Shown here one piece after another: positions 1 to 56,415 of a DNA stretch of 64,000 nt. The translations under genes were made by a program, and so were the position numbers. The notes beneath the pieces were generated by a model. That model had not been told where the DNA came from, searched no databases, and worked only from the letters and a program-made list of their open reading frames with translations. The DNA is from Pseudisothecium myosuroides (Eukaryota > Streptophyta > Bryopsida > Hypnales > Lembophyllaceae). The first letter of the stretch is position 1. Each line of letters starts with the position of its first letter. The stretch lies in contig OX637296.1 of NCBI GenBank assembly GCA_951799445.1, forward strand, positions 20,522,001 through 20,586,000. The letters run 5' to 3'.

Positions 1-1494
1 CCAATTTCTATACATTAATTCCGAAACACATTTTCCCTCCCACTTCTATTGTATGTGAGGTACATTTCTAACAATCTTCAATACAAGGAAATCTAGATTG
101 GCAATAGGCACCCTTGCCCAGAATCTTACATAGCAAAATCATAATCATTATTTTCTTGAATAGGAGTTAACATGGTATAATGAGACTTTCATCATCACTT
201 TTCACTTGTCAGGAAAGTAAAATATTATAAATAGGAATGTAGTAAGCTTTATTTGAACTTCAGAATATTGGTGACAAGAAATTATCACTTGTGCAATGAA
301 TCCCTAAAGTTAACCGTAGGATCTTGCAGTATACTAACTTCAAAACATGTGGTAAAATTATTAGAAATTTTCACTTCATGGATTGTTGAATATCAACATT
401 GAAATTCATTCAAATTAGTTTTTTGATCCTACAAAAAACTGGGCAACTACAATTTAGAAGCTATGAAAAAAAGTCCAACATGGGGGTACTTCATCGGATT
501 TTTTTCCCTAGACAAGTTGGTTACATGCTTAAATTTCTTCAAATCATTAGGAATTGGACAACATATGGAAAAAAAATAGTAAGTAGAAAAAGTACAGAAT
601 GATTAAAACTACTAAATTGTTAAGAATTTCATTATGGAATTGCAAAATTTCAATCCCAATGTTTGTAATGTTGTAATAAAAAATCTGCATCCTATGATTT
701 TAACTTCTTCAAAAAACATTGAAAATTCAGTTAAATAGTCAACTTTGAACTTTAGTTTAGAGTAGAGAATCCATAACTGCCCGTAAACAAAAACTCTTCA
801 TAACTTATGATTCATTGATCAAAATGGAATGATTAAAAGCTTTCCATGTATACGTAAATATAAAAAACCAATTTCAAATTTTTCTTTTTGAAATTTTTTT
901 TTTTTTTAATATGCCTAGACATCCCATTTACCAAAAAAAAGTAACATATTAGGCTATAACTTTTGACTCATATTTACATGTCATGAAATTCAGTGCATAT
1001 GAAAGATATTCCTCATCCCCAACTTCTAATAAAATTTCAACCTAAAACATGTAAATTTTTAGTCACAAGTACTTGCCCAAAATTGCTATGTTGTCCAAAA
1101 ACGCATGCTAGTCCTTTAGAAGTTAAAGATTAGAATGTTTGTTCATGAGGGTGTTAATAAGAACTACAAAAGTGATTTGGAGTCTTCCAATCCTCTTCTC
1201 ACATACCCAAAAGAGAGAAATGAGTCTTAACAAAAAAAATTGAGGTTGTAAGGCACAACATGCACAAGCTTGACCAAGTTTCTTAAATGAAGTCCTTATG
1301 TGACTTCTTATGTAGTGCAAGCTCATTTCAAACAGCCTTGAATAAGTAAGAAAACAACACTCTTGCACAAAATCTTCAATACCGTAACCATATACATGTT
1401 TTTCCAGAATATGAGTTTGGATGCTCAAACTTGACTTACGAAAGAATTTTTCAAAGTCATGAAATACAAAAATGAAACAGGAAGATGGCAAGCT
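1..1494. repeat. Nested remnants of TTAA-type elements
   Basis: No gene is seen. Positions about 300-1122 are a diverged relative of the element at 18706-19628: they share the 'gtaggatcttg' block, the 'cataacttatgattcattgatc' region and the end. The copy ends CCTTTAGAAG followed by TTAA at 1123-1126. Positions 1123-1494, and scraps around 95-165, resemble the element at 52157-52794 (for example 'catgagggtgtt' and 'cttgcacaaaatcttcaata'). The simplest reading is that the first family inserted at a TTAA inside the second, and that the 5' end of the inner copy has been lost. Confidence 0.5.
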
Positions 1495-2041
1495 TTAACC
1501 CCTCATTGCCGAAGGGGACGAAATCCATCCCCTGCAAATTGGAAAAGGTTGTGTCAACTTCGCAGATGGTCCATGTTCACTTGTTCCACCTCGGGATTCG
1601 CTAGGCGGGTAAAGACTCTGGCACATGATCTGTACCAGGGATTGCAAATCGTGAAAAAGAAAATTCCACAGCCTCTAAATTGGTCACACCCCACGTTATT
1701 GCAGGAAGACTTGGTCGTGCATTGTGCAAAGTAACCGGGAGATGCCGGTTGTAGACTGCCAGACCGTTGGTGCGATACTGTCACACCTCCTTGCAAATTT
1801 TTGTTTCTAGCTTTGTTTGTGTAGACATCGAATTGACAGGGTGATCGACTCAGTGAGTCCTCCTGTTTATTGGCTGTGTCCTTTGGACAGAGACTATGGC
1901 AACGACTCCGCATCGACTTTACAAAAACTTGAGTTTCCAAATTTTATCTACAACCGCATTCACACTCACCTACTTTTACAATTTCATATTTGTCTAACGT
2001 GAGGCCCGCGTGGCAAACCAAGAGGAACTCCCGGGAGGGAA

Positions 2042-2284
2042 TCCCGCTTGGCACGGCTCGCCTAGGCGGCCCCAGGTGCGACGTGGGAGCCCCCCGCCTG
2101 GGCGGACCCCTGCTGCGGCGAGGGAGCCCCCCGCCTGGGCGGACCCCTGTGCGGCGAGGGAGCCCTCCGCCTGGGCCGACCCCCTGCGGTGAGGGAGCCC
2201 CCCGCCTGGGCGGACCCCCTGTGCGGCGAGGGAGCCCCCCGCCTGGGCGGACCCCTGCCGGGGGAGCCCCGCCTTGGGCGGGGG
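2042..2284. repeat. GC-rich minisatellite, about 37-bp unit
   Basis: Five to six imperfect copies of a unit containing GCCTGGGCGGACCCC and GCGGCGAGGGAGCC. It ends abruptly at a T-rich tract. The open frames across it on both strands (Pro/Arg/Gly-rich) are by-products of the repeat. Confidence 0.9.
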
Positions 2285-2590
2285 CCATTTTTTTATTTTT
2301 TTTATTTTTTTATTTTTTTATTTTTTATTTTTTTATTATCAATTTTTTTATTTTTTTAATGTTTTAATTTCATTTTTAAACCTTTTTAATTTTACTTTTA
2401 TTTTCTTGTCTCTTGTTTTTTATTTTTTTGTTTTTTATTTGAGATTCTTAGATTTTTAAAAAAAATTAATTTTTAAATTTTAAATTTAAGTTTCATTTTT
2501 TTATATTTTACTTTTTATTTTGTTACTTTTTAAATCATTATTTTTTTATTTTTTTTTCCTTACATTACTAATTTTTGTTTATTGAGTCAT
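2285..2590. repeat. T-rich low-complexity tract
   Basis: About 300 bp of nearly pure T with scattered A, directly after the GC-rich minisatellite. The change in composition is very sharp and may mark the left edge of the AT-rich Helitron-like core. Confidence 0.85.
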
Positions 2591-2595
2591 CAAAT

Positions 2596-2712
2596 TAAAT
2601 TAGACTTAGGTGGATTAGACCTAAGTAGGTTAGATTAGACTTAGGTGGATTAGACCTAAGTAGGTTAGATTAGACTTAGGTGGATTAGATCTAAGTAGGT
2701 TAGATTCAGATA
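2596..2712. repeat. 35-bp tandem repeat
   Basis: About three and a half copies of a 35-bp unit containing TTAGACTTAGGTGGATTAGA and CCTAAGTAGG. It lies upstream of the RPA-like gene. No function is evident. Confidence 0.9.
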
Positions 2713-3031
2713 AGTCTTACACTTTAGATTAGACTTACGTAGATTTAGATATTCAACTTGTTGGGATTCCTGTCATCAAATCCAACGAGGTTTTTTTTTT
2801 AGAGTCTAATGGAGATGCTAAGCTATCAAGTTGGGTGAGATTTTTTGTATGATTTAGATGGTGGTGATGGTGACAGTGGTTTGGCGTGGAGAAGAAGACT
2901 AGCATACATAACAATTCGTCATTTCAGTGTCTACAAACTTCAGCATTTCCTATATTTGTTCTGTTGTTTTCTTGTACAACTTTTCAACTCTCGTTTAGTC
3001 GTTTGTAAGTTGTTGTTTTTTTGCATTTGCA

Positions 3032-4513
3032 ATGGCTGGTAGTAAGATGGTATTGTCAGTTGTCGAGATAGACGAAAACAGTCGAGATGTAGTGTTTGAA
3101 GGACAAATTTTGAGCCGCTACGGTACTTATGACTATATTCGTGCAAATCAGTCAAAAGACCGTGGCTATGCATATTTGCATTGTGATGTCATAGATAGAG
3201 AATGTTTAACAACAATTACTTTGTCTGTTTGTACACCGCTAATTGAACACCATCAAACTAAATTGCAACGAGGGAACTATGTGAGAGTAGAGAATTTTGC
3301 AGTCAAACCCAAAAGTGGTGGTGGGTTTCAGAAGGGAGACATGCCTTGTGTTATTTATGTCCAATCTACTACGCGTATCACAGTCCTTCCTCCCTTTGTA
3401 CCAGGATTTCTTCCTGTTTTTTACACGGAGGATTCTATCAGAGATTTCAAAAAACGTTGCCATGAAAACTTTCCAGTGGCAACATTTGCTGCTGCTGTAG
3501 TAGCAATTAAAGGTCATTATCAAGATATGTTTCAAATAGTTGTTGCCGATGGACTCACGCATGATGATCATGATACAGTTGGTTTTACACATGCATTTCA
3601 AAGGGAGTATTTGAAGATTCAAGAAAGTCACAACGCAGGAGAATGTGTGCTGGTCATGTTCAAGCACTTGAGTGTGACGTCAAAGTATGATCGTTTTTTG
3701 AAGACTGAAGCGTATACAATTGTTACTTCCGTGATTGATGAAGAGGAACGTGAGCGATTGACCAACGTTTATCACCAAATAACAGACTCTGGCACCTCAT
3801 CCGAAAATCTTAGAGAGGTAAGTGATGTATTGTGAATGTTTTACATTTATTCTTTAGTTTTTAGATTTTTAAGTTTTTATTCTAAAATTTTCCTTTTGAA
3901 CATGTTGCAGATCATTGGTGAGTTATCAGTCTTGAATCCAACCGTTCCACCTTTCAAACGCATTTGCTCAGTCTGTCAGTTGGCGAATGTAACGGTTGTA
4001 GCTGCCAGTGAATACTTCTGCAAAAACTGCCAGCGCAATCAGGTGACAGAACAACAACCTTTTCTTCGAGGTAAAATCAATATAGAAGATGCAGGAGACA
4101 TTGAAGTATCTATTGAAGGACCGTGGTTGTCATCTGTTGTTCACATGTCTGGTCAAGATTTTTTGAGAGAAACAAGAAAAGTACAAATTAGAATCCTATC
4201 GAAGATTCACATCACTGGAAAGTTTCAATTGACACCAACTTCACGTCTTGTTGGTTTTGAAGAGCATCACAAAGATGAACCATCTAGTGAATTAGTTTTA
4301 GCAGACAATAGTTTAGATTTTGTTTCTTCTCAGTGCACACCTATCTCTTCTTCTGTTCCATCTTGTGTGGAAAACGTGACTCCAATTTCAGTACAAGATG
4401 TCATCCCATCTTCCATAGATCTATTAGATAGCACTGCATCTCCATCACACTCTCGTCAGAAAAGTGTGAAGCGTAAATTGGATGATGCAATTGATAAAAG
4501 AAACAAAAAGTGA
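3032..4513 (+). CDS. RPA-like single-strand DNA-binding protein of the Helitron-like element (two exons)
   Basis: Predicted role: replication protein A-like OB-fold protein that coats single-stranded DNA during rolling-circle transposition. Plant Helitrons are known to carry RPA70-like genes. The reading frame is interrupted by a 93-bp intron with consensus GTAAGT at 3818 and TTGCAG ending at 3910. Exon 1 (3032-3817) is 262 codons and phase 0, and exon 2 (3911-4513) adds 200 residues, giving about 462 aa. Exon 1 is rich in the beta-strand patterns expected of OB folds (for example the stretches near residues 95-115 and 190-225). Exon 2 opens with a CxxC...CxxC zinc-binding pattern (CSVC, then CKNC), as in the C-terminal OB fold of RPA70. 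The tail is Ser/Pro-rich and ends in a basic KRK segment, a possible nuclear signal. The family assignment rests on pattern and context only. Confidence 0.7.
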
Positions 4514-4580
4514 CTATGTATATTGTATTTTATTTGTATTTGACTTGTATAAAACTAATGCTTTTTTGTTATTTTTGCAG

Positions 4581-4662
4581 ACTCATTTGTATATTTGTAT
4601 ATTTGTATATTTGTATATTTGTATATTTGTATATTTGTATATTGTATATTTGTATATTTGTA
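4581..4662. repeat. 8-bp microsatellite (TATATTTG)n
   Basis: About nine to ten copies of TATATTTG with one shortened unit, between the RPA-like gene and the Rep gene. A polypyrimidine stretch ending TTTTTGCAG (to 4580) precedes it and could act as a splice acceptor. Confidence 0.9.
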
Positions 4663-4683
4663 CTGTAGCAACTTTGTATAGGT

Positions 4684-7600
4684 TTGTACAATTCGTGGAA
4701 AATTTTGTATTTGACATTTGTTAATATGACAAAATTAGATGAGATATTAAAATGTTACAATCTTCAATGCAATACACATTACAAATATAATGTAGGAGAC
4801 TGTTTATTTGATTCTATCGCATATTTATTGCGATATACTGAATCATCGACAGATTTACGAATGAATGCAATGCGTCATTTAAAACAATGTTTAGCAATTA
4901 ATACTCCAAAAGCATATGAAACTCGAACAAAAGAATTAACTGAATCATTTCTACATGATTTACACAATGGACAAGTTTTAAATGAAGATCAATACATAGA
5001 AAGAATGTCAATGAGTGCAACTATCGGTGGATTGTGGGGAGATTTTACAGCAATCAAATGGATATCTGATTACTTAAAAAAACAAATTAGTGTCTGGAAT
5101 AAAGAAAATGGAAGGATACTTAGTACATTTGGCAGAGAGTTTAATAGTGAAACATTGCATATAGCTTTTGGAAGTAGTCATTTTGAACCAATAGAAGTTG
5201 TAGATGGTTTAATACCAATTCATGTACCAACTGAACTAACACAAAATAGAATAATAGATTTGGATAGAGAATATAATGACAATGAAACGCAAATTAAATG
5301 GAATGAAAAACAAAAAACAAACTTAACAGAATTTGAAATACAAAATGCTCAAAATTCCAAGCTCAATTGTATAAGCAATTTACAAATAAATAATTCTTAC
5401 AGTATAAATCGTGAAATGAAAAAATCTATGAGGATAAATTGGTCAGCTGAAATGAATGTTGAAATAATAAATTTAATGAATGATCCATATTTAACAAATT
5501 TAGAAATAGCAAAAAAATTTATTTTTTCAAACAATAATTTAAATATATCAATTCAACAAGTAATTAATCATATTAATGTATTAAAAAGGAAAAGATTAGG
5601 GGAAACCAATAAAAATAATAATGATGCAAATCTTAGTTGCAAAAGTAATGTACAAAATAGAAAGAGATCTTATACAAATTGGAAAAAATATGATCCTTCT
5701 CTTCAAGAACTTTCAAATGATTTGAATTATAATACTTTTGAAAATAAAGCAAATCGTTTTTTTGAATTGTTCCCAAATGAAAAACTTATAAACAATCAAG
5801 TTATAAAACGTTTAAAGTATATAGACCATAAAAAACATGTTGATTTAAAAAATACTACAAACAAAATAGAAACATCAAAACAAGAAAATCAAATTATGCC
5901 AACAACATCAGAACAAAGAAATGTTATGAATGTAAATAGGAAAGATTCAAAAAATGAAATTGTTCAAATTTTGAAACATTTGAAAATTGCAAATACAAAA
6001 ACAAAGAAAACGTGCAATTTCACTAAAAAATCATTAAATAAATCAAGAATTGGAAGGAAAAAAACAAGTTCTAAACTAGTATCAACAATGGAAAAACATT
6101 TCATTAATTTTAATAAAGAAATAAATGATGTGCCAATCTATGTGTGTTTTGTATGTCAAAGATTAAGTTTTTTGAAATTTTCCAGTTTAATAACACCTTC
6201 ATTGCAAGAAACAGTAAAATCTTTATTACAATGTGATTCTAACTTATTTACCAATGAGTCATTGTATGTTTGCAATCAATGTTTAAATGCGATTAAGAAA
6301 AATAAAATTCCATTGTATTTTGCACCTAAAAATATACACAGAAATTTGATTATATCATCTGTCAAGCAACTTACTATTTTAGAAGAAAGATTGATTTCCC
6401 CTCGCCAAGCTTTTGCACAAATTTATAAACTACATAATTATGGTCAATACAAAATGCATGGGAGTATTATAAATGTTCCAGCAAATATTGATAAAACACA
6501 ATCAATCCATCCTCGTTTACCTGAGGATGATAGTACAATAGGAGTTCTTTTAAAACGCTGTTTAGTATATAAATCTCCTTTTATGTCTGGAAATGTACGT
6601 CCCAATATGATCATGTTAGCACTGAAAGATTTGTTGAATACTCCGTTGTATAAAGAATTAAATGTTCAAATTCGTCCTTTATGGAATAGTTTGTTTACCA
6701 TACATCTCCAAACAAAAATTGAAAATGATCTTTTTGAAGAAGACACTGCAAACAAAGACAAGTTTGAAGAAGAAATAGAAGAGGTTTTTACAGAAACAAT
6801 GGTGCATAATTTTTTAGATTCTGAAATCATTCAAGATTATGATAGAACATCATCGATTGCATCTATTGAAAATGGTTTATCAGTTGCACCTAGTGAAGGA
6901 TACCACCCTATAGGAATTTTCAAAGATAAAAACAGCGAAGAACTTAATTTTCCAACATTGTATTTTGGTCATCCTCGAAATGAAAAAATATATAAAAATT
7001 TCTCTTATCATAAAATAGCAAAATGGGAATTATTGCATAAAAGTCATGATTTTGCTACAAATATTCAAAATATTTTTTTCAAAGCAACCAAGATTTGTAT
7101 TGAAAAAGTAAAAAATTCTAGTTGGGTTCGAATAAGAAAAGGAAAGTTAAATGGAAGAACTTTGACAGCTGCTGAAGTTTTTAAAGAATCTAATTTAGAT
7201 AAAATTTTCAAATCATACATTGGATTTCATGATTTAGAAAGGTTGCGTACATCGCCTGATTACATAGAAGGACTTCGGAAAAGTTTATTTGCAATGATCA
7301 GACAATTAGGTCCTCCAACATTTTTCATTACATTGACAAGTGCAGAACGTTTATGGACACCTTTAATTCAAGCTTTGTACAAACTAAATGTCACACGATT
7401 AAATTTACCTCATTTCCATTCTCTTGAATCTATTCATATAGCAGAATTAATAAGGTCCGATCCAGTGACATGTGCATTGTATTATAATCACCGCGCTGCG
7501 GCATTTCGTAAATTAATTAAAAAAGAAGCTTCAATTATAGGTGAAGTGGTAGATTTCTTTTTTATAACTGAATTTCAACATAGAGGTAGCGAACATGAAC

Positions 7601-8922
7601 ATGCGGTGATATGGATTAAAAATGCACCAAAATATAAAATAAGTTCATTTGAAGAAATTATTGCTTTTGTTGACAAATATATTACATCAGACAAATCATT
7701 TCTTCTTCCCCCTTTACAAGAGGCCCAAACTCATAAGCATTCACGCACATGTAGAAAAAAAGGACAACCTGTATGTAGATTTCACTATCCTCTTCCACCA
7801 ATGGAAAAAACAATGATTTTAGAACCAATTGACAATAAAGACATAGAAAATGCAAATTACTACAAAAATAAATACAAAGACATATTTGATTTCTTAAAAG
7901 AATTGGGCACTGGATCAGAAATGGCTTTTGATGAATTCCTACAACATTTTAATATAGACAGCTTGACTTACATTATGTGTTTACGTATTCAACTTAAAAG
8001 ACCACAAATATTTTTGAAACGGAAACTTTGTGATATACGTACTAATGCATTCAACAAAACTGTAGCAAATACATGGTATGCCAATACGGATATTCAATTT
8101 ATACTAGATCCATATGCTGCAGCTACCTATTGTACTTCATACATGACAAAAGTTGACAAAAGTATAACTACGGAATTAAAATCGATTATTCAAAAATGTA
8201 TAGAAGATAAAACAGATGCCGATAAACGGATTTTAAAACTTGGAAATGCTTTTTTGAATGCACAACAAATGTCAGCACAACTTGCTGTTTATCTCATTCT
8301 TTCTTTACCTCTCTATCATAGTTCACAAACATTTAAATTTATAAATACATCACCACCTGAAGAACGTGCCTTTTTTTTAAAACCTCAACAAACACTATCA
8401 AAATTGGCCCCGGAATCTTGTGAAGTTATGTGCAAATCCATTATTGACAGATACATAGGACGACCTCACTCATTGAATCACATATGTTTAGCTGAATTTG
8501 CATCAAAATACTATTGGGTAAAAAATAAAATAATAAAATGCCGAACACCCAAAATTATAAGGTTTGTTCATTATAACAAACATAGAGATTTAGAAAATTG
8601 GGCAAGAGAACAATTACTGTTATATGTACCATTTTCTAACACTGAAGCTTCTCAAAAAAATAACAAAGAAACTTGGAAAGAAGCATATGATGAGAAAATC
8701 AACGATATTATGAATATAAGTAAAAAATTCAACTATCAAATTGCTACAACAATACAACAAGATTGTGATGATGAATGGGATCGTTTACAAGAAATAGCTA
8801 ATAAATTACAAACTGACAAATGCTATAATATATGGGATGATATAGAAACAAATACAATGGATTTTTGTACAAGTACGGAGAACATTGAGAAATATGATCT
8901 TGCTTCGGATATATATATATAA
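4684..8922 (+). CDS. Helitron-like Rep protein with N-terminal OTU domain
   Basis: 1412 aa from 4684. Met15 (4726) is an equally likely start because it sits just before the OTU homology. Residues about 25-175 form an OTU cysteine-protease-like domain with GDCLFDSI (Cys40) and a downstream SSHFEPI (His166). Residues about 250-300 look SANT/Myb-like. CxxC pairs near residues 487 and 529 form a zinc-binding region of the kind seen in Helitron proteins. The Rep region has the HUH-type motif as GSEHEHAVIWI (His971, His973) and paired tyrosines Tyr1149-xxx-Tyr1153 in ATYCTSYMTK, the expected nicking residues for rolling-circle transposition. A cysteine-rich block (CRKKGQPVCRF) lies between them. 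The protein is strongly Lys/Asn-rich, unlike the host gene at 48.7 kb. The stop lies in a (TA)n tract just before the helicase frame. Helitron Rep and helicase are normally one polypeptide, so this copy is probably frameshifted. Confidence 0.88.
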   Translation: MYNSWKILYLTFVNMTKLDEILKCYNLQCNTHYKYNVGDCLFDSIAYLLRYTESSTDLRMNAMRHLKQCLAINTPKAYETRTKELTESFLHDLHNGQVLNEDQYIERMSMSATIGGLWGDFTAIKWISDYLKKQISVWNKENGRILSTFGREFNSETLHIAFGSSHFEPIEVVDGLIPIHVPTELTQNRIIDLDREYNDNETQIKWNEKQKTNLTEFEIQNAQNSKLNCISNLQINNSYSINREMKKSMRINWSAEMNVEIINLMNDPYLTNLEIAKKFIFSNNNLNISIQQVINHINVLKRKRLGETNKNNNDANLSCKSNVQNRKRSYTNWKKYDPSLQELSNDLNYNTFENKANRFFELFPNEKLINNQVIKRLKYIDHKKHVDLKNTTNKIETSKQENQIMPTTSEQRNVMNVNRKDSKNEIVQILKHLKIANTKTKKTCNFTKKSLNKSRIGRKKTSSKLVSTMEKHFINFNKEINDVPIYVCFVCQRLSFLKFSSLITPSLQETVKSLLQCDSNLFTNESLYVCNQCLNAIKKNKIPLYFAPKNIHRNLIISSVKQLTILEERLISPRQAFAQIYKLHNYGQYKMHGSIINVPANIDKTQSIHPRLPEDDSTIGVLLKRCLVYKSPFMSGNVRPNMIMLALKDLLNTPLYKELNVQIRPLWNSLFTIHLQTKIENDLFEEDTANKDKFEEEIEEVFTETMVHNFLDSEIIQDYDRTSSIASIENGLSVAPSEGYHPIGIFKDKNSEELNFPTLYFGHPRNEKIYKNFSYHKIAKWELLHKSHDFATNIQNIFFKATKICIEKVKNSSWVRIRKGKLNGRTLTAAEVFKESNLDKIFKSYIGFHDLERLRTSPDYIEGLRKSLFAMIRQLGPPTFFITLTSAERLWTPLIQALYKLNVTRLNLPHFHSLESIHIAELIRSDPVTCALYYNHRAAAFRKLIKKEASIIGEVVDFFFITEFQHRGSEHEHAVIWIKNAPKYKISSFEEIIAFVDKYITSDKSFLLPPLQEAQTHKHSRTCRKKGQPVCRFHYPLPPMEKTMILEPIDNKDIENANYYKNKYKDIFDFLKELGTGSEMAFDEFLQHFNIDSLTYIMCLRIQLKRPQIFLKRKLCDIRTNAFNKTVANTWYANTDIQFILDPYAAATYCTSYMTKVDKSITTELKSIIQKCIEDKTDADKRILKLGNAFLNAQQMSAQLAVYLILSLPLYHSSQTFKFINTSPPEERAFFLKPQQTLSKLAPESCEVMCKSIIDRYIGRPHSLNHICLAEFASKYYWVKNKIIKCRTPKIIRFVHYNKHRDLENWAREQLLLYVPFSNTEASQKNNKETWKEAYDEKINDIMNISKKFNYQIATTIQQDCDDEWDRLQEIANKLQTDKCYNIWDDIETNTMDFCTSTENIEKYDLASDIYI

Positions 8923-8923
8923 A
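8908..8923 (+). other. (TA)n slippage site between Rep and helicase frames
   Basis: The Rep frame ends in a run of alternating TA. The helicase frame is open back to 8898, upstream of its first ATG at 8988, and overlaps this run. The two frames differ by two bases, the size of one TA unit, so loss of one unit would join them. This is direct frame arithmetic. Whether the shift is a mutation or a programmed event cannot be told from one copy. Confidence 0.75.
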
Positions 8924-8987
8924 ACCACATGCAAAACATTACACCAAGCTAGATTTAGAACATCATACTTTTCGAAATGTTGATTTA

Positions 8988-11174
8988 ATGAACGAGTTAG
9001 AATTTTTCAAATTACTTCGCAATCTAAATGGAGAACAAAGAGCAATTTACGATGATCTCATGTATAGAAAGCGTGTTAAAATAGATACTCCTATACATTT
9101 ATTCCTAACTGGTGGTGCAGGAACCGGTAAAACATTCACATTACAACTTATTGTGCAGGGATTGTTGCGGTTTTATCATAGTGATATAGAATCAGATCCT
9201 TTAAAGCCAAAAACACTATTGATGGCATATACAGGAAAAGCTGCTTTTAATATAGATGGGTGTACTATACATTCAGCTTTACACATTCCAATAAATCAGT
9301 CACTATCAAACATTGGAAAATTGTCATCAGAATTGCTAAATAAATTAACTGATCAATATGAACAAATAAAATTAATAGTAATAGATGAAATATCACTTGT
9401 TGGAGCAAGGATGTTGGATGCAATTGATCAAAGACTTCGTTCCATTAAACATGTTCAAAACAAATTTTTTGGTGGACTAGACGTTATAGTTTGTGGTGAT
9501 TTCTATCAAGCGCCTCCAGTTAGAGATAAATGGGTCTTTCAAAAATTAAATCACGGACTATGCTCCTTAGCGCCTAGTTTTTGGTACGAATGTATACAAT
9601 GTTATGAACTAACCACTGTTATGCGACAAAATGATCCAATGTTTATTGACATACTGAATAGGTTTCGAAAAGCCACTCAAACCATTGCAGATGTTAACAT
9701 GATCAATTCATTATGCTTGAAAACACCTCCAAATGATTCCACTATTCCACACTTGTTTTACATGAATAAAGACACAGCGGTTCATAACATAAAAGTTTTT
9801 GATCAAGTTAAAGGGCCTACATATCATTTAAAAGCAGTTGATATTCGACATCCTTCTTTGTCTCCGTCATTTGAAATTCCCAATGATCCTAGCAAAACTG
9901 CTGGATTACATACAATAATAAAAGTAAAAAAAGACATGTTAGTAGAACTTTGTGCAGGGAATTATGCTACACATGATGGTTTAGTCAATGGAGCTGATGG
10001 TCTTTTCAAAACATCAATTATCAAAAATTCAAAGGAATACATCATGATAGAATTTTTAAATGCAAAAGTTGGAACTTTAACACGTTTGTCAAATGTTCAT
10101 TTATATAATGACAAAAATATTGCATCAACATGGACACCCATTGAAGCATTAACAAAGGAAATAATGTTTGGTCAAACCCGCACACATCTCATCACTCGCA
10201 TTCAATTTCCGATACAATTAGCAGCTGCACGAACCATTCATCGTTCACAAGGTTTGTCTTTAGATGAAATGGCATTCAATCCAAAAGGGGTCAACAAGCA
10301 TGGACTTTCATATACTGCTTTGTCACGTATTAGAACAAAAGAAAAATTGTATCTATTGTATCCATTAACCATGTCAAACTTTCATGTTGAAAATTCCGTT
10401 TGTTCAGAGATGGAAAGATTAAAGTCAACAGCAAAATGGAACTTATTTGTACCAATGTTAAAAACCATGCGCCATTCGCATACAATCATTCAAAGCATTA
10501 ATGTCAATTCTTTACCTAAACACCAACACGATATACAATTTGATCATAATCTTCAATCATCCCACATATTATGTTTTCAAGAAACCAGGGTTAAACTTGC
10601 ACAAGAAGTGCCACAATTTATAGATACATCCAAATTCAACTACATACATACATTTGACAAACATGGTCTACTTTTGCTATATAATAAAAACATTACATGT
10701 TCAGCGACTACAATTAAAAATCACAGTGGATCTGAATTTATAGGAGCGACATTTAATGAAAGCACTCGAAGTGCTATCCATATAATAGCTGTTTATCGAT
10801 CTCATTCTACTTGTATATCAATGTTTCTTGAAATTATAAAAGAATTAATTACTAAAGCTCCATTAACATGTCCTATTCTAATTCTTGGAGATTTTAATGT
10901 AGATTTAAATATGCAAAAAAACAAAGATAACACTTCTCAACAACTTATTCAAGTTATGTCTAAACATCACTTCAGACAACAACTATCAACACCTACTACT
11001 AAATCCAATTCATTAATAGATCATATCTGGACGAATATCCCAGGCCAAGATACAAAATATGGTGTTACGGATGCGTATTGGCCAGATTATCACAAACCAA
11101 TATATTGTGCATTCAAACTTCCAAATACTATGCCTAACTACACATGCAACAAACAAAATTTATCTTTTGTTTAG
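8988..11174 (+). CDS. PIF1-family helicase with C-terminal endonuclease (EEP) domain
   Basis: 728 aa from the first ATG; the frame is open further upstream to 8898. Residues about 15-480 are a PIF1/RecD-type superfamily 1B helicase. Visible motifs are Walker A GGAGTGKT (42-49), Walker B IDEIS (Asp133-Glu134), the CGDFYQAPPV motif, the VMRQ motif, ARTIHRSQGLSLD (near 413) and YTALSRIRT (near 440). Residues about 500-715 match the endonuclease/exonuclease/phosphatase fold: INVNSLP, CFQET (Glu532), GDFNVD (Asp635), SLIDHIWTN and a terminal DYHKPI in place of the usual SDHxP. A helicase-EEP fusion is characteristic of the Helitron2/Helentron branch rather than canonical plant Helitrons. Predicted role: unwinding of donor DNA, with a second nuclease activity of unknown use. 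Confidence 0.9.
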   Translation: MNELEFFKLLRNLNGEQRAIYDDLMYRKRVKIDTPIHLFLTGGAGTGKTFTLQLIVQGLLRFYHSDIESDPLKPKTLLMAYTGKAAFNIDGCTIHSALHIPINQSLSNIGKLSSELLNKLTDQYEQIKLIVIDEISLVGARMLDAIDQRLRSIKHVQNKFFGGLDVIVCGDFYQAPPVRDKWVFQKLNHGLCSLAPSFWYECIQCYELTTVMRQNDPMFIDILNRFRKATQTIADVNMINSLCLKTPPNDSTIPHLFYMNKDTAVHNIKVFDQVKGPTYHLKAVDIRHPSLSPSFEIPNDPSKTAGLHTIIKVKKDMLVELCAGNYATHDGLVNGADGLFKTSIIKNSKEYIMIEFLNAKVGTLTRLSNVHLYNDKNIASTWTPIEALTKEIMFGQTRTHLITRIQFPIQLAAARTIHRSQGLSLDEMAFNPKGVNKHGLSYTALSRIRTKEKLYLLYPLTMSNFHVENSVCSEMERLKSTAKWNLFVPMLKTMRHSHTIIQSINVNSLPKHQHDIQFDHNLQSSHILCFQETRVKLAQEVPQFIDTSKFNYIHTFDKHGLLLLYNKNITCSATTIKNHSGSEFIGATFNESTRSAIHIIAVYRSHSTCISMFLEIIKELITKAPLTCPILILGDFNVDLNMQKNKDNTSQQLIQVMSKHHFRQQLSTPTTKSNSLIDHIWTNIPGQDTKYGVTDAYWPDYHKPIYCAFKLPNTMPNYTCNKQNLSFV

Positions 11175-11615
11175 AATGTTTTATATTCACAATTTTTGCA
11201 ATTAAATTAATTTAAAAAAAGGTCAATTTTACATACATATATGTATAATAAAAAATACATATACATATACATTTTTATTTTATTTTTAGATTTTTATTAC
11301 AATTAGTATTTGATGTCCCTAGATTTCTATTTTGTCATTGGAATAATTTGTGCAAATCAATTTTCATATTCATTATACTTTGAAAGGTAAAACAAAATTA
11401 ATTTTACTTTAACCAACAATTTTACTTTACTTTAACCAACAATTTAATTTTACTTTAACCAACAATTTAATTGATTTCTTTTATTTTTTTTGCCATCTTT
11501 TACTTTTTCCTATCTTTTATTTTTTTTCCATCTTTTATTTTAAAATATTCTTAGTATTTTTGTATAAATACATCTGTTTTCATATATATTTTTCAATATC
11601 ATTTCTTTTGCAACC
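11175..11615. promoter_or_regulatory. AT-rich spacer with tandem repeat and TATA box before the second OTU gene
   Basis: The spacer contains three copies of a roughly 20-bp unit including TTTACTTTAACCAACAAT (11401-11470). A good TATA box, GTATAAATAC at 11560-11569, lies about 50 bp before the ATG at 11616. This suggests that the 913-aa gene has its own promoter rather than being read through from the helicase. Confidence 0.55.
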
Positions 11616-14357
11616 ATGTCAAAGACTAAGAAGCAGTTCGAACCATTATCAAAGGGAGACTATGAAAAATTTGGACAATTCTGTAAAACACTACAGTTAA
11701 AATTTGTTCATAATTACGATTATAGAATTGGTGATTGTTTATTTGACACCGTCAGCTATATAATGCTTTACAAAAACAAATTCTCGAGAGATGAACAATA
11801 TCGAACTGCAGACAATCTTCGAACCCAAGCAATAAATGTGCTAAAAGATTATGTTGCAGATGGTCATCCACAACAACAAAAATGGACAACAACTATAAAA
11901 CTCGCTCTGAGTGATTTGCACGGCCAACAAAATACATCCATAGATCAATACTTCGAATTGATGTCAAAATCTAGTAGCAGCCACAATGGATTGTGGGGAG
12001 ATGGAACTATGATACAATTCATGGCTCTATATTTACAACGGCCTTTTCAAGTTTACGACATTGCTATGTTTAGAGACTTGAAAAAAGACAAAAAAACCCT
12101 ACAAAATATGTATTATACAATTTCTGACGGGGTAGCACCCGGAAATGATCCCATACGCATCGCGTACAATGGCATTGACCATTATATTCCCATTGTTGAA
12201 TTGCAAGCTGATAGCTCTCCTACCAATTCTCCTTCAAGTTCAACAAAAGGAAGTCCTATCAAACAAAGACCTAAAAAAAAGATGAAGACCAATCAGACTC
12301 AAAATTGGAATGACACCATTGAGTTTTATCCATATGAAAGACTAGAAAGTGGTTACATATTTGGTCGAGATTACAAATTCGATGTATATATCGATCATAT
12401 TTTAGAACCATCCAATTTGACCAATCAACGAGAATGCAATGCAAATACTGTGGACAAAGTTTATAAATTATTACAAAGTGGTTCAAATACAATGTCACCA
12501 CTTGTACTAAAACCCATCGGCATTCAATATGAAGGGTCAAAAGACATCAAGAAGTTTGATCAATGGTTTACATTTCAAGATGTACTAATAAAGCCTGGTT
12601 GCATAGTTCATTCTAAACCAACAACATTGTTTTTATCTTCATTAAGATGGGAACCTGTTGATGGACAACATGTAGTCCAAGCTTGTAAGGATGCAGCAAA
12701 AAAATTTAAACAAGGCGAATTGTCTGTACTAGCTTATGAGAATATATTCAAAACAAGACAAGCTACTATGGTTTTCTATGATGAACCTCTCAAATATTTG
12801 GCTATGTCTTCTCACCTTAACGAAGAATTTTATAAGAGACAAACATATACAATTGTTTTTCAAGATCTACAAAAAATGAGGATTGTATATGAATATTATG
12901 AATGTCCTGATCCAGAGCTTCGTGAAGATGATTTCAACCGAATGAATGTAGTAAAAGCTATGATCTACATTCTTCATCGGCAATCTGACAAAACAGAAGA
13001 CAAAACATTAAGCAACCTTTGGAAATCTTTAGATCATTATACAAGCCATGTATTTTTGTCTGACAAACATGCTTTTCAAGAACTCTTAAAAATGTGTAAA
13101 GCATACGATGAAAAGCATATATTCTTCAATGAAAATGACAAGAAGAAATATGAAGAAAACGGAGATTTTACCAAAAGACCCTTCACGATAAAATGGTTGA
13201 AGCCCTGGAGGAACTTGAGTATAGAGCAACACAAAGAATTAAGCCGCTTATGCAATAAGCCTCAATGTTTTTTTTTTAATGGAGTGGATGCAAAAACTTT
13301 GCAACCAAAGACTGCTGCATATATGGCCAATAGAATGAAATCACTTTCAGCAGTTCAAAATGCTTTGAAGTGGCTAACAAATGAAGGTGAACATTTACTT
13401 GAACATATGATGTTTTCCCATGATACATCTAAATACGGTTCGGAAGACCAACTTGTATCTCTTCTCAACAATGAATGCAAAAACTTCAAGACAAATTGGG
13501 CTAACATATCGGCTAAACAAGAATTGTCCAAGTTAAAAAACTTGGAAAAACTTATTCCAAGAGAAATTTGTAACCTCTATAATAGCAAAAAAAAGAGGTT
13601 ACAAATTTCAAATATGCAATGGACTTGGAAATATACAAAAACTGTTAAAAATACAAAAGGTTTGAAAACATTGATACCTATTCAAATAGCAGCTAAGTTG
13701 GGATCCATTCAAGAAGATTTAATAGTAATTCCTGAAGATGCTCTATTTATTTTTGATACACGATATGGAGGAAATACAAAAGAAAAGGGTAATTGGACTA
13801 CTAACGACTATGAAGCTTTTGGTCACAACATGGCCAAATGGACTTTGAAAAACAAGAGGTGGAATGCAATTTTATTATTACCTCTTAATGCGTCATCAAA
13901 AACAAAATCAAAGTTAAATATCCAAACTCCACATATAATGTTTGGAGGTGTTTATCGTTTTCCACAACATATTAGGAGACGAATAACAACTAATCATAGT
14001 ACCAAATCAAAAATTACCGCTGAAACATTTGGAGAAATACTTTTTGTAATTTCATCTTCAATCGGGAATACTAATTTTGAACCAAATTTTCCAAGTGATG
14101 TTGATCCTAAACGTCGATTTATTTATGATGATGAAGACACGGACATCTCACAACGTAAAAAAGCAGCTATTATAACCCTTATTAAGAGTTATATGCCCAA
14201 CAGTTGGTCATTAGTCTTAATAGGTGCTACTAATCAGGTGTCCAATGTAATATCAAAACTTCCAAAGAAAATATCCAAGATCTATGTCTTTGAGTCTTCG
14301 AAAAATCTATTAGAAGAACTAGAAAAGATCATTGCTCCAGGGTCCAAAAAACATTAG
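11616..14357 (+). CDS. OTU protein with ParB-like motif and possible degenerate DNA-methyltransferase-like C-terminus
   Basis: 913 aa; no named family recognised for the whole protein. Residues about 25-200 are an OTU domain with GDCLFD (Cys41) and DHYIPI (His189). It is clearly paralogous to the N-terminus of the Rep protein: both share the GLWGD block between Cys and His. A Ser-rich, basic linker follows (about 200-230). Residues about 255-410 contain VDGQH (Asp349-His352) followed by an alpha/beta stretch and HLNEEF, resembling the ParB/Srx nuclease-like fold. Near residue 714 the sequence IFDTRYGG, then an ILLLPL strand and near 870 LVLIGATN followed by a strand ending IYVFESS, has the order expected of a beta-class amino-methyltransferase (motif IV before motif I). 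The catalytic DPPY would be replaced by DTRY, so such a domain would be inactive or misassigned. The basic C-terminus ends GSKKH. AATAAA lies at 14395. Confidence 0.8.
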   Translation: MSKTKKQFEPLSKGDYEKFGQFCKTLQLKFVHNYDYRIGDCLFDTVSYIMLYKNKFSRDEQYRTADNLRTQAINVLKDYVADGHPQQQKWTTTIKLALSDLHGQQNTSIDQYFELMSKSSSSHNGLWGDGTMIQFMALYLQRPFQVYDIAMFRDLKKDKKTLQNMYYTISDGVAPGNDPIRIAYNGIDHYIPIVELQADSSPTNSPSSSTKGSPIKQRPKKKMKTNQTQNWNDTIEFYPYERLESGYIFGRDYKFDVYIDHILEPSNLTNQRECNANTVDKVYKLLQSGSNTMSPLVLKPIGIQYEGSKDIKKFDQWFTFQDVLIKPGCIVHSKPTTLFLSSLRWEPVDGQHVVQACKDAAKKFKQGELSVLAYENIFKTRQATMVFYDEPLKYLAMSSHLNEEFYKRQTYTIVFQDLQKMRIVYEYYECPDPELREDDFNRMNVVKAMIYILHRQSDKTEDKTLSNLWKSLDHYTSHVFLSDKHAFQELLKMCKAYDEKHIFFNENDKKKYEENGDFTKRPFTIKWLKPWRNLSIEQHKELSRLCNKPQCFFFNGVDAKTLQPKTAAYMANRMKSLSAVQNALKWLTNEGEHLLEHMMFSHDTSKYGSEDQLVSLLNNECKNFKTNWANISAKQELSKLKNLEKLIPREICNLYNSKKKRLQISNMQWTWKYTKTVKNTKGLKTLIPIQIAAKLGSIQEDLIVIPEDALFIFDTRYGGNTKEKGNWTTNDYEAFGHNMAKWTLKNKRWNAILLLPLNASSKTKSKLNIQTPHIMFGGVYRFPQHIRRRITTNHSTKSKITAETFGEILFVISSSIGNTNFEPNFPSDVDPKRRFIYDDEDTDISQRKKAAIITLIKSYMPNSWSLVLIGATNQVSNVISKLPKKISKIYVFESSKNLLEELEKIIAPGSKKH
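13563..13609. repeat. Perfect 16-bp hairpin inside coding sequence
   Basis: GAAATTTGTAACCTCT (13563-13578) is exactly complementary to AGAGGTTACAAATTTC (13594-13609), with a 15-base A-rich loop. It lies within the 913-aa gene and keeps the frame. It may be a folded RNA or DNA signal, or the footprint of a small insertion. Confidence 0.85.
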
Positions 14358-14360
14358 AAA

Positions 14361-14997
14361 CAATTTTTGTATTTTATGTACTATTTTATTATTAAATAAA
14401 GAGATATTAATCATATTTTGTTATTACTTCATGTTTGGTTATATATATTGATATATAAGATAATTTTTTTTTGACACACTTGCTCACCAAGACAGAGCCT
14501 CACGGTCACACCGTTCTTGTTTTTTGCCTCCTGAAAATACTGGAAACCTGCATTTACCCATTGCTAGGAAACCCCATTGCAAGTCAGCCGGTCACAATAG
14601 GCAGCGGATGCTACTTTCAATCTTCAATCTCCCGTAGATGGTGCAGATTTTTTATTTGGAAATTTTTTCGGACGTTGGTGCTATTCAGTTCTCGCTACTC
14701 AAAAAATATTCTCCTGAAATTTGGCTTTTTTCATGTCAAAATCTTGTCCGATGTCACAGAGCGGATAGCTGATGATCCGCTGAAAACTCAAACGTTGTGC
14801 TCAATCAAATGTCATTGTCAAAGAATTGAACGCACTAGGTTTTGATCGGACCAGATCACCAGGCGCACTATCGCCTGATCTACCAATTTGAACAATGAAT
14901 TTTTGTAGGACTCATCCAATTGATGGTGCAGCCCCTTTCTTTTGCACGCCCCCTGTTCTGCTCTCATGCACGCCTTCAGAGCCTTGGCAATGAGGGG
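14361..14997. other. Right non-coding end of the 13.5-kb element
   Basis: AT-rich 3' flank of the last gene to about 14470, then about 520 bp of more balanced composition ending at the terminal inverted repeat. No gene is seen. The switch at a T run (14464-14471) mirrors the one at about 2285 on the left. Confidence 0.6.
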
Positions 14998-15001
14998 TTA
15001 A

Positions 15002-23870: not shown

Positions 23871-25422
23871 CATTAGTTATAGACAACTCGACAAGCAATT
23901 GTCGAGTAATAAAATCACAAGTGAGGCTTTAAGCACGCCACTAATGGCTTTCTTAATAGATGAATTACACCCCATTCAACAATATCCGAGGTTTTAAATG
24001 GTTTGACATCAGGATATAAAGGAGTCAAGTCAAATAATTGCAAGATATTTATTAAAATAATATGAACATGCAAAAAATCTAACCCCCTTCCAGGACATAA
24101 TTTTTTTCCTATCAAATATACAATATCTCTTTGTCTTTTCCAATGACTCTTATGACAAGGATTTTCATCAATGAATCTATTTGGATCAAAACAACATGGA
24201 TTTTTATGAACTTCTAAATCACTACCAAGGGCACCAAGGTGACATATGACTTGAGTATTTATTAGAAGTCTATAACCTCCTATGTTAACTTCTCTTGTAA
24301 TTGAGTGTGGAATAGTAAATGTAACTGGACATGATATCCTTATATTTTCTTTGATAAATGCATTTAAGTACAGCATCTTGTCAATGTCCAATATGGATAT
24401 CTAGAACATTGAAATATTTGTGTTGGTAAAGTATATAAATAAAATACTAATTTTTTAATGAAGAATTCAATACTTAATTTTTAGTTATAAAATGATTGAT
24501 TCAATAGTTTTTTTTATATGTAAATAAATGATGTAAGCATTTAAAATAACTTATTTTTATATAAACTTTATTAATGATGAATAGATTTTTCAATAAATAG
24601 ATAGATGAATAGTTTTTTCAATAAGTAAATGAAATAATAATAACTTCTTGTTGAAAAATACTTGTTATACAATATATGTATATTCAAATTTTATCAAATA
24701 TTCAATTAGTGTTAGATTTCTCAATACAAATTAAGTAGTTGAAACTTACATGCGATCTTTTTCCACATACAACATCAATCTCTTGGTGTACTTTTGTTTG
24801 CATATGTAGATTTGACATGAGATGAGCTATAATCCATTCCAAACTTGCGGACATATTATCAATATTGGCTAATATTAATTCACTTAATAGCCAAACTATT
24901 TCCTTATCATGCAATTGTTCCCCTCCTTTAAGTGAAACCAAATGGTTTACTAAATCCACTAGAAGTGCTTGTGGAGCCTTAGTATTTGCTCGTTCTCTAT
25001 AGTCTTAAATTACGATAAGAAAGGTCTAATTGATCATCATTTTCATATAATTCAAAATATTAAGTATTTATGTAAGAAATAAGAAATAAAATCGTATTTT
25101 TTATTAATAGAATTATACTTTTGATTAAAAAAACATATACAATGAGGTTAAATTTGAGAATATTTTTCTTTACCTTTTCCAATTTTTTGGATATTGCTGA
25201 CCTTTGTAAATCTATTGGGGTTGGTAAATGACATGTTGTTGGTAAAAAATCACTAATAATAAATGCTGGCCCAAGTCGTATTATTTTCATAAATAAAGAT
25301 TCAAGTTGCATCACGTTAGGATCTTTATGAGATCCAATGCCCTCCGCAATTGCATCTACTCTTTTTCCAAAACATATATTAAACATTAGTCTAAATGATG
25401 AGTGACGCAAATGAGGTCTTAA

Positions 25423-26563
25423 CCCCTAAAGGACCATTGTCCCTACGGAGGACAAATGCGTTTTTGGGCAGGTACCTACGGGCTGAAATTTTCTCCTGAT
25501 TTTCTGAAACTTTTTGTGAACATGAAAAATTGAGAGAGGTACGTGGCAGAAGAAAAAAAATTTGAAATCGGACCTTTGAGCGAGAAGTTATGCCATTTCT
25601 TGGAATGCGTGGCGACGGGGGGCAACAAAAAAAAATTGCAAAATTTTGAATTTTAAATTATTTTTTTTTTCTCATAGATTATATTTTTTCTATCTGAAAA
25701 GCTTTGATTCATTTCATTTGGATATGTTATGAGAAAGTTATGGACATTCTTGTTTTTCGAGCAGTTCAAGCATCTTCTTGAAAAAAATAACTTTAGGATT
25801 CATTTCTGAATGCAATTTTTAAAAAATTTCAATTTTGTTTTTTGCATGGTCTGATTTACTTGTTAGAACAATCCCACCATTGGGATTAGTGCATTTTAAT
25901 TCCATCTAAAATATATGAATATTTTAGATTTTCCTTCTATCTTGTACCTACATCTACTTAACAATTTTTTTAAGAATGATAATTAATTTTTTTTGGAATT
26001 TTTTTTTCCCTAGACTCTCAACTCAATTCTCCACTACAAGCATTAAAAGCTCAAAACTCTGTAGTGCAAAAATTTTAAGTTAACCCTTAAACGTCGAGGC
26101 GGACACTTTGAGTTCGATGGATGACAGGGAATCAAACTGTATAGGACAGAAGTGCAACTATTCATCCTCAAAATTTGTTGTCGAAAGGGAAAATCTTCCA
26201 CAATAGTTTGACTTGCAATGAGTATTTTTGCTATTTTGGAGGCTAATGATTCACACGGTAATAGAAAAGGATGATTTCAAGGATCACCCTTTCATCCTTT
26301 AAGGGTTAAAAATGTTCAAAGTCAAAAAATCCAGTCCTGCAATGTGCTGAAAAACTTGTTTTTTCCACTTTAAACGCAGATATCTTGCAATCTGTGAGGT
26401 CAAAAATTCTGAAATTTTTTCCACACTTTTTTATACTAGTTAGATGTAAGATCCTACGGTTAGATGTGGAAAAAAAACAATTAAATTTTTTTTTAACTCT
26501 TTGCTACAGAAATGGCAGTTTTCAGTGTTTTTTGGCAGAAAAAAGGCCTCGGTCCTTTAGGGG
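25423..26563 (-). mobile_element. TTAA-type element inserted in a P450 exon
   Basis: TTAA at 25419-25422 and 26564-26567; ends CCCCTAAAGGACC and GGTCCTTTAGGGG, a perfect 13-bp TIR. Apart from a nested 222-bp element it is a reverse-oriented relative of 33736-34656. The P450 frame continues across it once one TTAA is kept. Confidence 0.88.
26084..26305. mobile_element. 222-bp TTAA-type MITE nested in the previous element
   Basis: TTAA at 26080-26083 and 26306-26309; ends CCCTTAAACGTCGAGG and CATCCTTTAAGGG. Same family as the copies starting at 30141 and 30484. It interrupts homology to the 33736-34656 element exactly. Confidence 0.87.
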
Positions 26564-26843
26564 TTAATGATACCCATGCCGGTTTAATACTATTGCCTTT
26601 GGCCATTTCTTCTTTTAAATTGCGTTGCAATATTTTTATATCATATTCATGAGTAGTTTGAAAACTCATTGCGTGAGCATGTTCTAAAAGGCAATTATAG
26701 TAAATTTGCCGTAATTTATGCCAATGTGCACCATTGTAAGGGGGAATACATTTTAAATTTTTATAACCACCTGGATATAAAACCATATATGGCCAACTAA
26801 TCTTCTTTGGAGGACAAAATATAATTTCATATTTTTCCAAAAC

Positions 26844-33731: not shown

Positions 33732-33735
33732 TTAA

Positions 33736-34656
33736 CCCCTAAAGGACCGCGGCCTATTTTTTTGCCAAAAAACACTCAAAACTGCCATTTCTATAGCAAA
33801 GAGTAAAAAAAAAATTTAATTGTTTTTTTTTCACATCTAACCATAGGATCTTACACCTAACTAGTATTAAAAAGTGTGGAAAAAATTTCAGAATTTTTGA
33901 CCGCATAGATTGCAAGATATATGCTTTTGAAGTTCACAAACAAGTTTTTCAGTACATTGCGGGACTGGATTTTTTGACTTTGAACATTTTTAACTTAAAA
34001 TTTTTGCACAACAGATTTTTGAGCTTTAAATCTTTATAGTGGAGAATTGAGTTGAGAGTCTAGGAAAAAAAAAGAAATTCAAAAAAACTTAATTATCATT
34101 CTTCAAAAAATTGTTAAGTAGAAGTAGGTACGAGATAGAAGGAAAATCTAAAATATTTATATATTTTAGATGGAATTAAAATACACTAATCCCAAAGGTG
34201 AGATTGTTCTAGCAAGTAAATTAAACCATGAAATTTTATTTTTTTTGAAAAATTGCAAAAATTGCATTCAGAAATGAATCCTACAAGTTATTTTTTTCAA
34301 GAAGATGCTCTAACTGCCCGAAAACAAGAATGTCCATAACTTCCTCATAACAAAGTCAAATGAAATGAATCAAAGCTTTCCAGATAGACAAAAATATAAT
34401 CTATGAGCAAAAAAATTTAAAAAAAAAAATTCAAAATTTTGCAAATTTTTTTTGCTGCCCCCCATCCCCACGCATTCCAAGAAATGGCATAACTTCTCGC
34501 TCGAAGGTCCGATTTCAAATTTTTTTTTTCCGCCACGTACCTCTCTTAATTCTTCACATTCACAAAAAGTTTCAAAAAATGGTATGAATTTGTCCCCCCG
34601 TAGGTACATGCCCCAAGTCCCATTTGTCCCTCGAACAGACAATGGTCCTTTAGGGG
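33736..34656. mobile_element. 921-bp TTAA-type element
   Basis: TTAA at 33732-33735 and 34657-34660; perfect 13-bp TIR CCCCTAAAGGACC / GGTCCTTTAGGGG. It is the best-preserved member of the family also seen at 20795 and 25423. No coding capacity, so any transposition would need an enzyme supplied elsewhere. Confidence 0.88.
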
Positions 34657-34660
34657 TTAA

Positions 34661-52152: not shown

Positions 52153-52156
52153 TTAA

Positions 52157-52794: not shown

Positions 52795-52798
52795 TTAA

Positions 52799-55311: not shown

Positions 55312-55578
55312 TTAAACCCTAAATGCCTAAGGCCAAATTAAATGATCAAACTTTGATAAGGATTATCAGGATTTTTAAAATTGTATCCATACGTACAAAT
55401 TCAAACTAGGTGTTTTATAGACCACATAATGAAAGAAAACACAACAATATTACTTATGGATTGAAAGATGATAATGCTTGATCAAGAGTGTTAAAACCAT
55501 AAATTGATTTGAAGTCTTTGTATTTCTTTTTTTCATGTCAAATCTAAAATTGAGGTCATTAAATAAAAATGTGGTTAA

Positions 55579-56318: not shown

Positions 56319-56415
56319 TTAAGGAACATAGCATGCATAACCATAATCAGTTTACGACTTTTTAAAATCTATTCTATAAGTTTTTTAATGAATTTTGAAT
56401 GTGATTTTTCCTAAT

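What the first reader, a model, noticed from the sequence alone, without database searches (positions are those of the whole stretch)
1499..14997. Helitron machinery enclosed by piggyBac-like TTAA termini
Seen: TTAA plus a 12-bp perfect TIR bounds 13.5 kb whose genes are Rep/HUH, PIF1-EEP, RPA-like and OTU proteins, with no visible piggyBac transposase. Known: Helitrons lack TIRs and target duplications, whereas piggyBac elements duplicate TTAA. The combination is unexpected. Either a Helitron-like element landed in a non-autonomous TTAA carrier, or a hybrid element moves by two routes and the Helitron cargo supplies functions to it.
Basis: partly seen in the sequence, partly recalled or inferred. 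Interest (0 to 1): 0.9.

Follow-up and report, generated by a model that had tools for sequence, protein, structure and literature searches.

The report
Helentron inserted into a piggyBac MITE
A 12.7-kb rolling-circle transposon (a Helentron) of a land plant jumped into the middle of a small, older TTAA-flanked transposon, so the odd-looking hybrid is an ordinary case of one jumping gene landing inside another.

Summary
But these features belong to two elements. Eight other copies of the gene set in the same 388-Mb genome, 98.1-99.1% identical over the longest aligned piece of each, begin at window base 1865/1866 and end at 14521-14523. None of the eight has the TTAA/TIR ends. The edges have Helentron anatomy: subterminal inverted repeats, hairpins, TT flanks. 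Conversely, TTAA/TIR elements of 0.87-1.35 kb without a Helentron occur elsewhere, including an 867-bp relative of the interrupted carrier. The TTAA+TIR motif occurs 538 times with up to 1 mismatch, against 9 for the control. The genome holds many piggyBac transposase genes and full-length elements with kindred ends, TTAA-CCCCTCAGGGCC. A second 14-kb TTAA/TIR pair is another small element, split by an unrelated 13.3-kb transposon.

The parts
1495..1498 (.). left TTAA target-site copy of the outer (piggyBac-type) element
   Evidence: read directly; TTAA also flanks full-length piggyBac elements of this genome
1499..1865 (+). left 367 bases of the interrupted outer element; TIR CCCCTCATTGCC at 1499-1510
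   Evidence: 66% identical to L028:3132-3452 of an uninterrupted 867-bp relative; not shared by any of the 8 other Helentron copies
1866..14522 (+). Helentron, about 12,657 bp, edges uncertain by 1-3 bases (runs of T)
   Evidence: 8 other copies align from 1865/1866 to 14521-14523 and then diverge
1872..1892 (+). 5' subterminal inverted repeat (GGCTCTGTC in 7 of the 8 other copies; one changed base in this copy, another in C9) overlapping a hairpin
   Evidence: sequence; DNA fold of 1866-1905, z -2.59, 4 of 200 shuffles at least as good
   Evidence: ORFs and sequence; no RPA hit; AlphaFold model without alignment of no use, mean pLDDT 38
4684..8922 (+). OTU - DUF6570 - Helitron_like_N (HUH Rep) reading frame
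   Evidence: Pfam
8988..11174 (+). PIF1 helicase - EEP endonuclease reading frame; in copy C7a one continuous 2167-aa frame holds this and the Rep, while here and in C9 the two frames are shifted against each other
   Evidence: Pfam; frames of nine copies
11616..14357 (+). second OTU-domain protein, 913 aa
   Evidence: Pfam
14491..14522 (+). 3' subterminal repeat GACAGAGCC (14491-14499), hairpin ACGGT-CAC-ACCGT (14502-14514), end TTCTTGTT
   Evidence: identical in all nine copies up to the last base (T in seven, A in two); DNA fold of 14483-14523, z -2.92, 2 of 200 shuffles at least as good
14523..14997 (+). right 475 bases of the interrupted outer element; TIR GGCAATGAGGGG at 14986-14997
   Evidence: 66% identical to L028:3554-3998
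14998..15001 (.). right TTAA target-site copy
   Evidence: read directly

Best explanation
A recent copy of a Helentron (a Helitron-like rolling-circle transposon with OTU, HUH-Rep, PIF1 helicase and EEP endonuclease domains) inserted at a TT inside an older, 842-bp non-autonomous piggyBac-type element. The Helentron presumably moves by Rep nicking and rolling-circle copying between its own subterminal repeats and hairpins (inferred from the family). The outer element was presumably placed earlier by a piggyBac transposase acting in trans, which made the TTAA duplication (inferred from the kinship of its ends to full-length piggyBac elements in the same genome). The two have no functional tie. 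Shown here: both sets of ends, the separate existence of each partner, and the nesting.
For: 8 of 8 other copies of the gene set share the edges 1865/1866 and 14521-14523; the 40 bases next to each edge differ in all nine; no TTAA pair with a 10-bp inverted repeat at up to 1 mismatch encloses any of the eight within up to 3 kb on each side. Helentron anatomy as in PMC4067079 (passages): subTIRs, nearby inverted repeat, 3' hairpin, TT target, T runs at the borders, EEP and OTU domains. Outer element: uninterrupted 867-bp relative with TTAA/TIR at C2:48014931-48015797; complete TTAA/TIR pairs in 6 of 11 related locus extracts; four 972-982-bp pairs; motif 253+285 against control 4+5. piggyBac DDE domain: 116 matches scored of 899 candidates; two pairs of 99.9% identical copies end TTAA-CCCCTCAGGGCC and TTAA-CCCCTAAATG and carry the DDE domain. 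Age: Helentron copies 98.1-99.1% identical over their longest piece, carrier only 66% to its nearest complete relative found. A second 14-kb TTAA/TIR pair is a split 970-bp element with an unrelated guest.
Against: The closest complete relative of the carrier is only 66% identical, and the alignment across the junction has gaps, so the empty site is shown through a relative, not by an exact empty allele. Only copies that keep most of the Rep domain were examined; Rep-less derivatives with the same ends could not be counted because those searches did not complete. Some flanks share dispersed repeats with the window's flank: C2 with window 311-1126 (78%), C5 with 2-155 and 1119-1267, though at other distances or on the other side. 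At 2 mismatches three AT-rich TTAA pairs enclose C7a; none begins with CCC.
Confidence: 0.96

Rival explanations
1. Hybrid element: the TTAA/TIR ends and the Helentron genes form one unit that moves by both piggyBac transposition and rolling-circle copying.
For: Both TIRs are perfect and both TTAA are intact; piggyBac transposase genes exist in the genome, so mobilisation of the whole in trans is physically conceivable.
Against: 0 of 8 other gene-set copies have the outer ends. A search with the carrier's right part found 3 places: the window itself, a 66% relative without Helentron, and a 99-base partial. Carrier-type elements read elsewhere lack the genes.
Confidence: 0.02
2. The Helentron prefers to insert into TTAA/piggyBac-type elements.
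For: 1 of 9 copies lies in one; such elements are frequent nearby (2 intact TTAA-CCCC elements in 52.4 kb of flanks; the carrier and four more in this window).
Against: No enclosing TTAA-CCC pair in the other 8. At 2.5% (flanks) to 6.9% (rest of the window) coverage by intact TTAA-CCCC elements, about 20-47% of sets of nine random insertions would include at least one such hit (hand calculation).
Confidence: 0.02
3. The outer TTAA element belongs to another TTAA superfamily (Kolobok or Sola3) rather than piggyBac; the nesting stands either way.
For: Kolobok and Sola3 also duplicate TTAA (recalled); the carrier itself encodes no transposase.
Against: Full-length piggyBac elements of this genome with DDE_Tnp_1_7 end in TTAA-CCCCTCAGGGCC, sharing CCCCTCA--GCC with the carrier's CCCCTCATTGCC. 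Kolobok and Sola transposases were not searched for.
Confidence: 0.08

Closest known systems
Helentrons (PMC4067079, passages read; the alternative name HLE2 is recalled)
   Same: Rep with PIF1 helicase and C-terminal EEP endonuclease, OTU protease domain, subterminal inverted repeats with an inverted repeat beside the 5' one, short 3' hairpin, insertion at TT with T runs at the ends.
   Different: The host is a land plant, whereas the passage in that paper gives a broad distribution in opisthokonts and a very limited one elsewhere; a second OTU gene follows; gene 1 could not be shown to be RPA.
Non-autonomous piggyBac-type elements (MITE-like)
   Same: TTAA duplication, CCC-starting TIR of 12 bp, no transposase gene, relatives of about 1 kb in many places.
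   Different: This copy is split by a 12.7-kb Helentron; an autonomous partner with the identical 12-bp TIR was not found.
Teratorn (piggyBac-herpesvirus fusion, PMC5601938, abstract and outline read)
   Same: Large gene cargo in an element of piggyBac type.
   Different: Teratorn is a recurrent fused unit that retains transposition activity; here the composite was seen once and both partners occur apart.

Membership tests
Helentron | HUH Rep + PIF1-type helicase | tested here: met
   PF14214 72 bits, PF05970 111.6 bits, both over the cut-off
Helentron | EEP/AP-type endonuclease C-terminal to the helicase | tested here: met
   PF14529 and PF03372 within residues 504-702 of 728
Helentron | Rep, helicase and endonuclease in one protein | tested here: inconclusive
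   one 2167-aa frame in copy C7a; in the window copy and C9 the frame is shifted between Rep and helicase, and the other copies are interrupted in the Rep part
Helentron | OTU cysteine protease | tested here: met
   PF02338 in two proteins, both over the cut-off
Helentron | RPA protein (often present) | tested here: inconclusive
   no Pfam RPA or PDB match; structure model of no use
Helentron | subterminal inverted repeats and hairpins at both ends | tested here: met
   GGCTCTGTC / GACAGAGCC; hairpins at both ends
Helentron | insertion at TT | tested here: met
   all nine copies begin TTT and end CTTGTT followed by T (7) or A (2); neighbouring 40 bases differ; no exact empty sites were available
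piggyBac-type non-autonomous element (outer) | TTAA target-site duplication | tested here: met
piggyBac-type non-autonomous element (outer) | TIR kin to an autonomous piggyBac of the same genome | tested here: met
   CCCCTCATTGCC against CCCCTCAGGGCC of two 5.4-kb copies, one of which (L042) was shown to carry DDE_Tnp_1_7
piggyBac-type non-autonomous element (outer) | mobilised by that transposase | not testable with these tools
   needs an excision assay
piggyBac-Helentron hybrid element | recurrence of the composite with the same junctions | tested here: not met
   0 of 8 other gene-set copies

The most novel reading that the evidence does not exclude
Because both TIRs and both TTAA are intact and piggyBac transposase genes are plentiful in this genome, the 13.5-kb composite could still be cut and pasted in trans, giving this one Helentron copy a second way to move.
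Probability: 0.05. Interest if true: 0.4.

Novelty: new member of a known kind. Interest (0 to 1): 0.12.

Why it matters
It removes a claimed hybrid transposon: each part is an ordinary member of a known kind. What remains of mild interest is a multi-copy Helentron with OTU and EEP domains in a land plant, and a land-plant genome crowded with piggyBac elements and small TTAA elements with kindred ends.

Tried and rejected
The hybrid reading was tested through copies of the gene set and copies of the outer element, and rejected. RPA identity of gene 1 was tried with Pfam (E up to 10), PDB sequences (first part only) and an AlphaFold model without alignment (first part only): no result. Rfam found nothing at gathering score in the window. 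Host: among the 120 matches listed for the L-aspartate oxidase frame at 49790-51628, the best are unnamed (76-95%), and the best named ones are two liverwort genera, a clubmoss, Selaginella and a fern at 69-75%, with seed plants close behind; the species was not determined. Papers: passages of PMC4067079, PMC6431247, PMC10813416 and PMC10619864; abstract and outline of PMC5601938; all others only as search listings. In PMC10619864 the word found was only 'piggybacking'.
Full report
Observation. TTAA-flanked perfect 12-bp inverted pairs within 15 kb occur 8 times in the window, three of them joining parts of two neighbouring elements, and in none of 60 first-order Markov sequences, so the pair is real. 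Between lie OTU-DUF6570-Helitron_like_N, PIF1-EEP and OTU reading frames. The RPA label was not confirmed.

The gene set has its own ends. A Pfam search of the own genome for Helitron_like_N gave 51 matches. I fetched the eight others that score 71.9-78.2 bits, like the window's 77.6, and span at least 155 of the 191 positions. Two partial matches of the same score range (C1:51807975 and C1:24382045) and the remaining matches, mostly better-scoring ones of other Helitron families or fragments, were not examined. All eight align to the window from base 1865/1866 to 14521-14523 and then stop; the longest piece of each is 9,475-12,800 bases at 98.1-99.1% identity. With shorter words the non-repeat pieces range from 93.9 to 99.7%, lowest in the first 0.4 kb, and pieces of the tandem repeat near 2059-2281 are lower still. 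The 40 bases outside each edge differ in all nine; further out, C2 and C5 share dispersed repeats with the window's left flank, at other distances or on the other side.

None of the eight carries the outer ends. The exact 12-bp TIR is absent from all eight stretches. No TTAA pair with a 10-bp inverted repeat at up to 1 mismatch encloses any of them within 3 kb of each edge (right flanks read were 2.7-3.0 kb, for C9 only 0.7 kb, which extended to 3.2 kb with the same result), while the window's own pair is found by the same test. With flanks joined and up to 2 mismatches there is none within 3 kb total; with 2 mismatches and the wider span three AT-rich pairs appear at C7a and none at the other seven.

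The ends are Helentron ends. They read TTT[A/G]TTGGCTCTGTCCTTTGGACAGAG on the left, with single-base differences in the window, C9 and C5, and AAGACAGAGCCTCACGGTCACACCGTTCTTGTT on the right. PMC4067079 describes for Helentrons subterminal inverted repeats, an inverted repeat beside the 5' one, a 3' stem loop, a TT target and variable T at the borders, with EEP and OTU domains (passages). Both ends fold better than most shuffles (z -2.59 and -2.92; 4 and 2 of 200 shuffles at least as good).

The outer element lives on its own. Without the Helentron 842 bp remain. At C2:48014931-48015797 an 867-bp element with TTAA and TIR (CCCCTCATCGCC / GGCGAGGAGGGG) matches both halves at 66% and has no insert. 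Among 11 locus extracts, six hold a complete TTAA/TIR pair (up to 3 mismatches in 16 bases) of 0.94-1.35 kb; two are the same C2 locus; three show only one end in the stretch read. Several of those six are alike mainly at their ends, and three of them (L034, L035, L039) appear in the opposite orientation and align poorly. The motif TTAACCCCTCATTGCC with up to one mismatch occurs 253 + 285 times against 4 + 5 for the reversed control. Four pairs that I picked from that list because the two ends lay about 1 kb apart, three with exact motifs and one with a mismatch at one end, are 972-982 bp and 87-89% alike; with the carrier they share only the terminal 25 bases or less. The window has four more TTAA-CCCCTAAA elements, at 25419-26567, 33732-34660, 52153-52798 and 55575-56322 (that scan lists seven pairs, three of other kinds, against 1 in its control).

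Source of mobility. The own genome gave 899 first-look candidates for the piggyBac transposase domain, of which 116 were scored and listed, all over the cut-off. Two copies 99.9% identical over 5.4 kb are bounded by TTAA-CCCCTCAGGGCC ... GGCCCTGAGGGG-TTAA, two others over 5.6 kb by TTAA-CCCCTAAATG ... CGTTTAGGGG-TTAA; the one of each pair that I tested encodes DDE_Tnp_1_7. So the outer element is best read as a non-autonomous piggyBac-type element. This is inference from the ends: a transposase-coding element with exactly the same 12-bp TIR was not found, and Kolobok or Sola transposases were not searched.

A control case. Among the exact motifs one other pair in the right orientation lies about 14 kb apart, C8:3785169-3799430. 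It is a 970-bp-type element split by a 13.3-kb guest. The two pieces of the element overlap by four bases (alignment positions 73-76), the guest has 29-bp inverted ends (28 of 29 bases alike), one of the nine ORFs given to Pfam holds DUF7869, and there is no similarity to the Helentron or to the two full-length piggyBac elements compared. A second, unrelated large transposon has thus landed in such an element, which speaks for chance.

Chance. Intact TTAA-CCCC elements cover 2.5% of the 52.4 kb of flanks around the other eight copies (two elements, 1,288 bases; one AT-rich pair not counted) and 6.9% of the window apart from the composite (3,472 of 50,493 bases). With nine independent insertions this gives about 20-47% for at least one nesting (hand calculation). 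No preference need be invoked.

State of the copy. In the copy at C7:528225 Rep, helicase and endonuclease form one 2167-aa frame; in the window and in C9 the frame is shifted between Rep (stop at 8922) and helicase. Copies are alike while the carrier is far from its nearest complete relative found (66%), which fits a recent insertion into an old element (inference).

Known or new. [quoted passage not shown] The Rep search here listed 87 proteins: the best, at 68%, has no named organism, and two are from the conifer Cryptomeria at 42-44%, so plant relatives already stand in databases. Searches for Helentron, Helitron2, HELIANO, HLE2 and moss terms and for piggyBac with bryophyte or land-plant terms showed no title or abstract start describing either in bryophytes; some searches listed only 10 of 32, 10 of 5,471 and 8 of 36 papers, so this is not a claim of first report.

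Noticed in passing
G000 genome-wide; examples L042, L043, L044, L045: A land-plant genome with 116 scored piggyBac transposase-domain matches (of 899 candidates), including sets of five and six with the same score; two pairs of copies read are 99.9% identical over 5.4-5.6 kb, which suggests recent piggyBac activity in a plant.
   Followed up: partly
L046/L047 (G000:C8:3785169-3799430): A 13.3-kb transposon with 29-bp inverted ends and a DUF7869 protein; the other eight ORFs tested have no Pfam match. It sits in a 970-bp-type TTAA/CCCCTCATTGCC element.
   Followed up: partly
window 25419-26567, 33732-34660, 52153-52798, 55575-56322: Four further TTAA-CCCCTAAA inverted-repeat elements of 0.6-1.1 kb in the same window.
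   Followed up: partly
window 2059-2258: GC-rich 37-bp tandem repeat inside the Helentron's 5' region; alignments of the copies break up there.
   Followed up: no
window 8898-8922: The Rep and helicase frames are shifted against each other at a TA run, as in copy C9, while copy C7a keeps one frame.
   Followed up: partly
L010:4490-6573 (copy C9): This copy holds a second, inverted 2.1-kb copy of its 3' OTU region.
   Followed up: no
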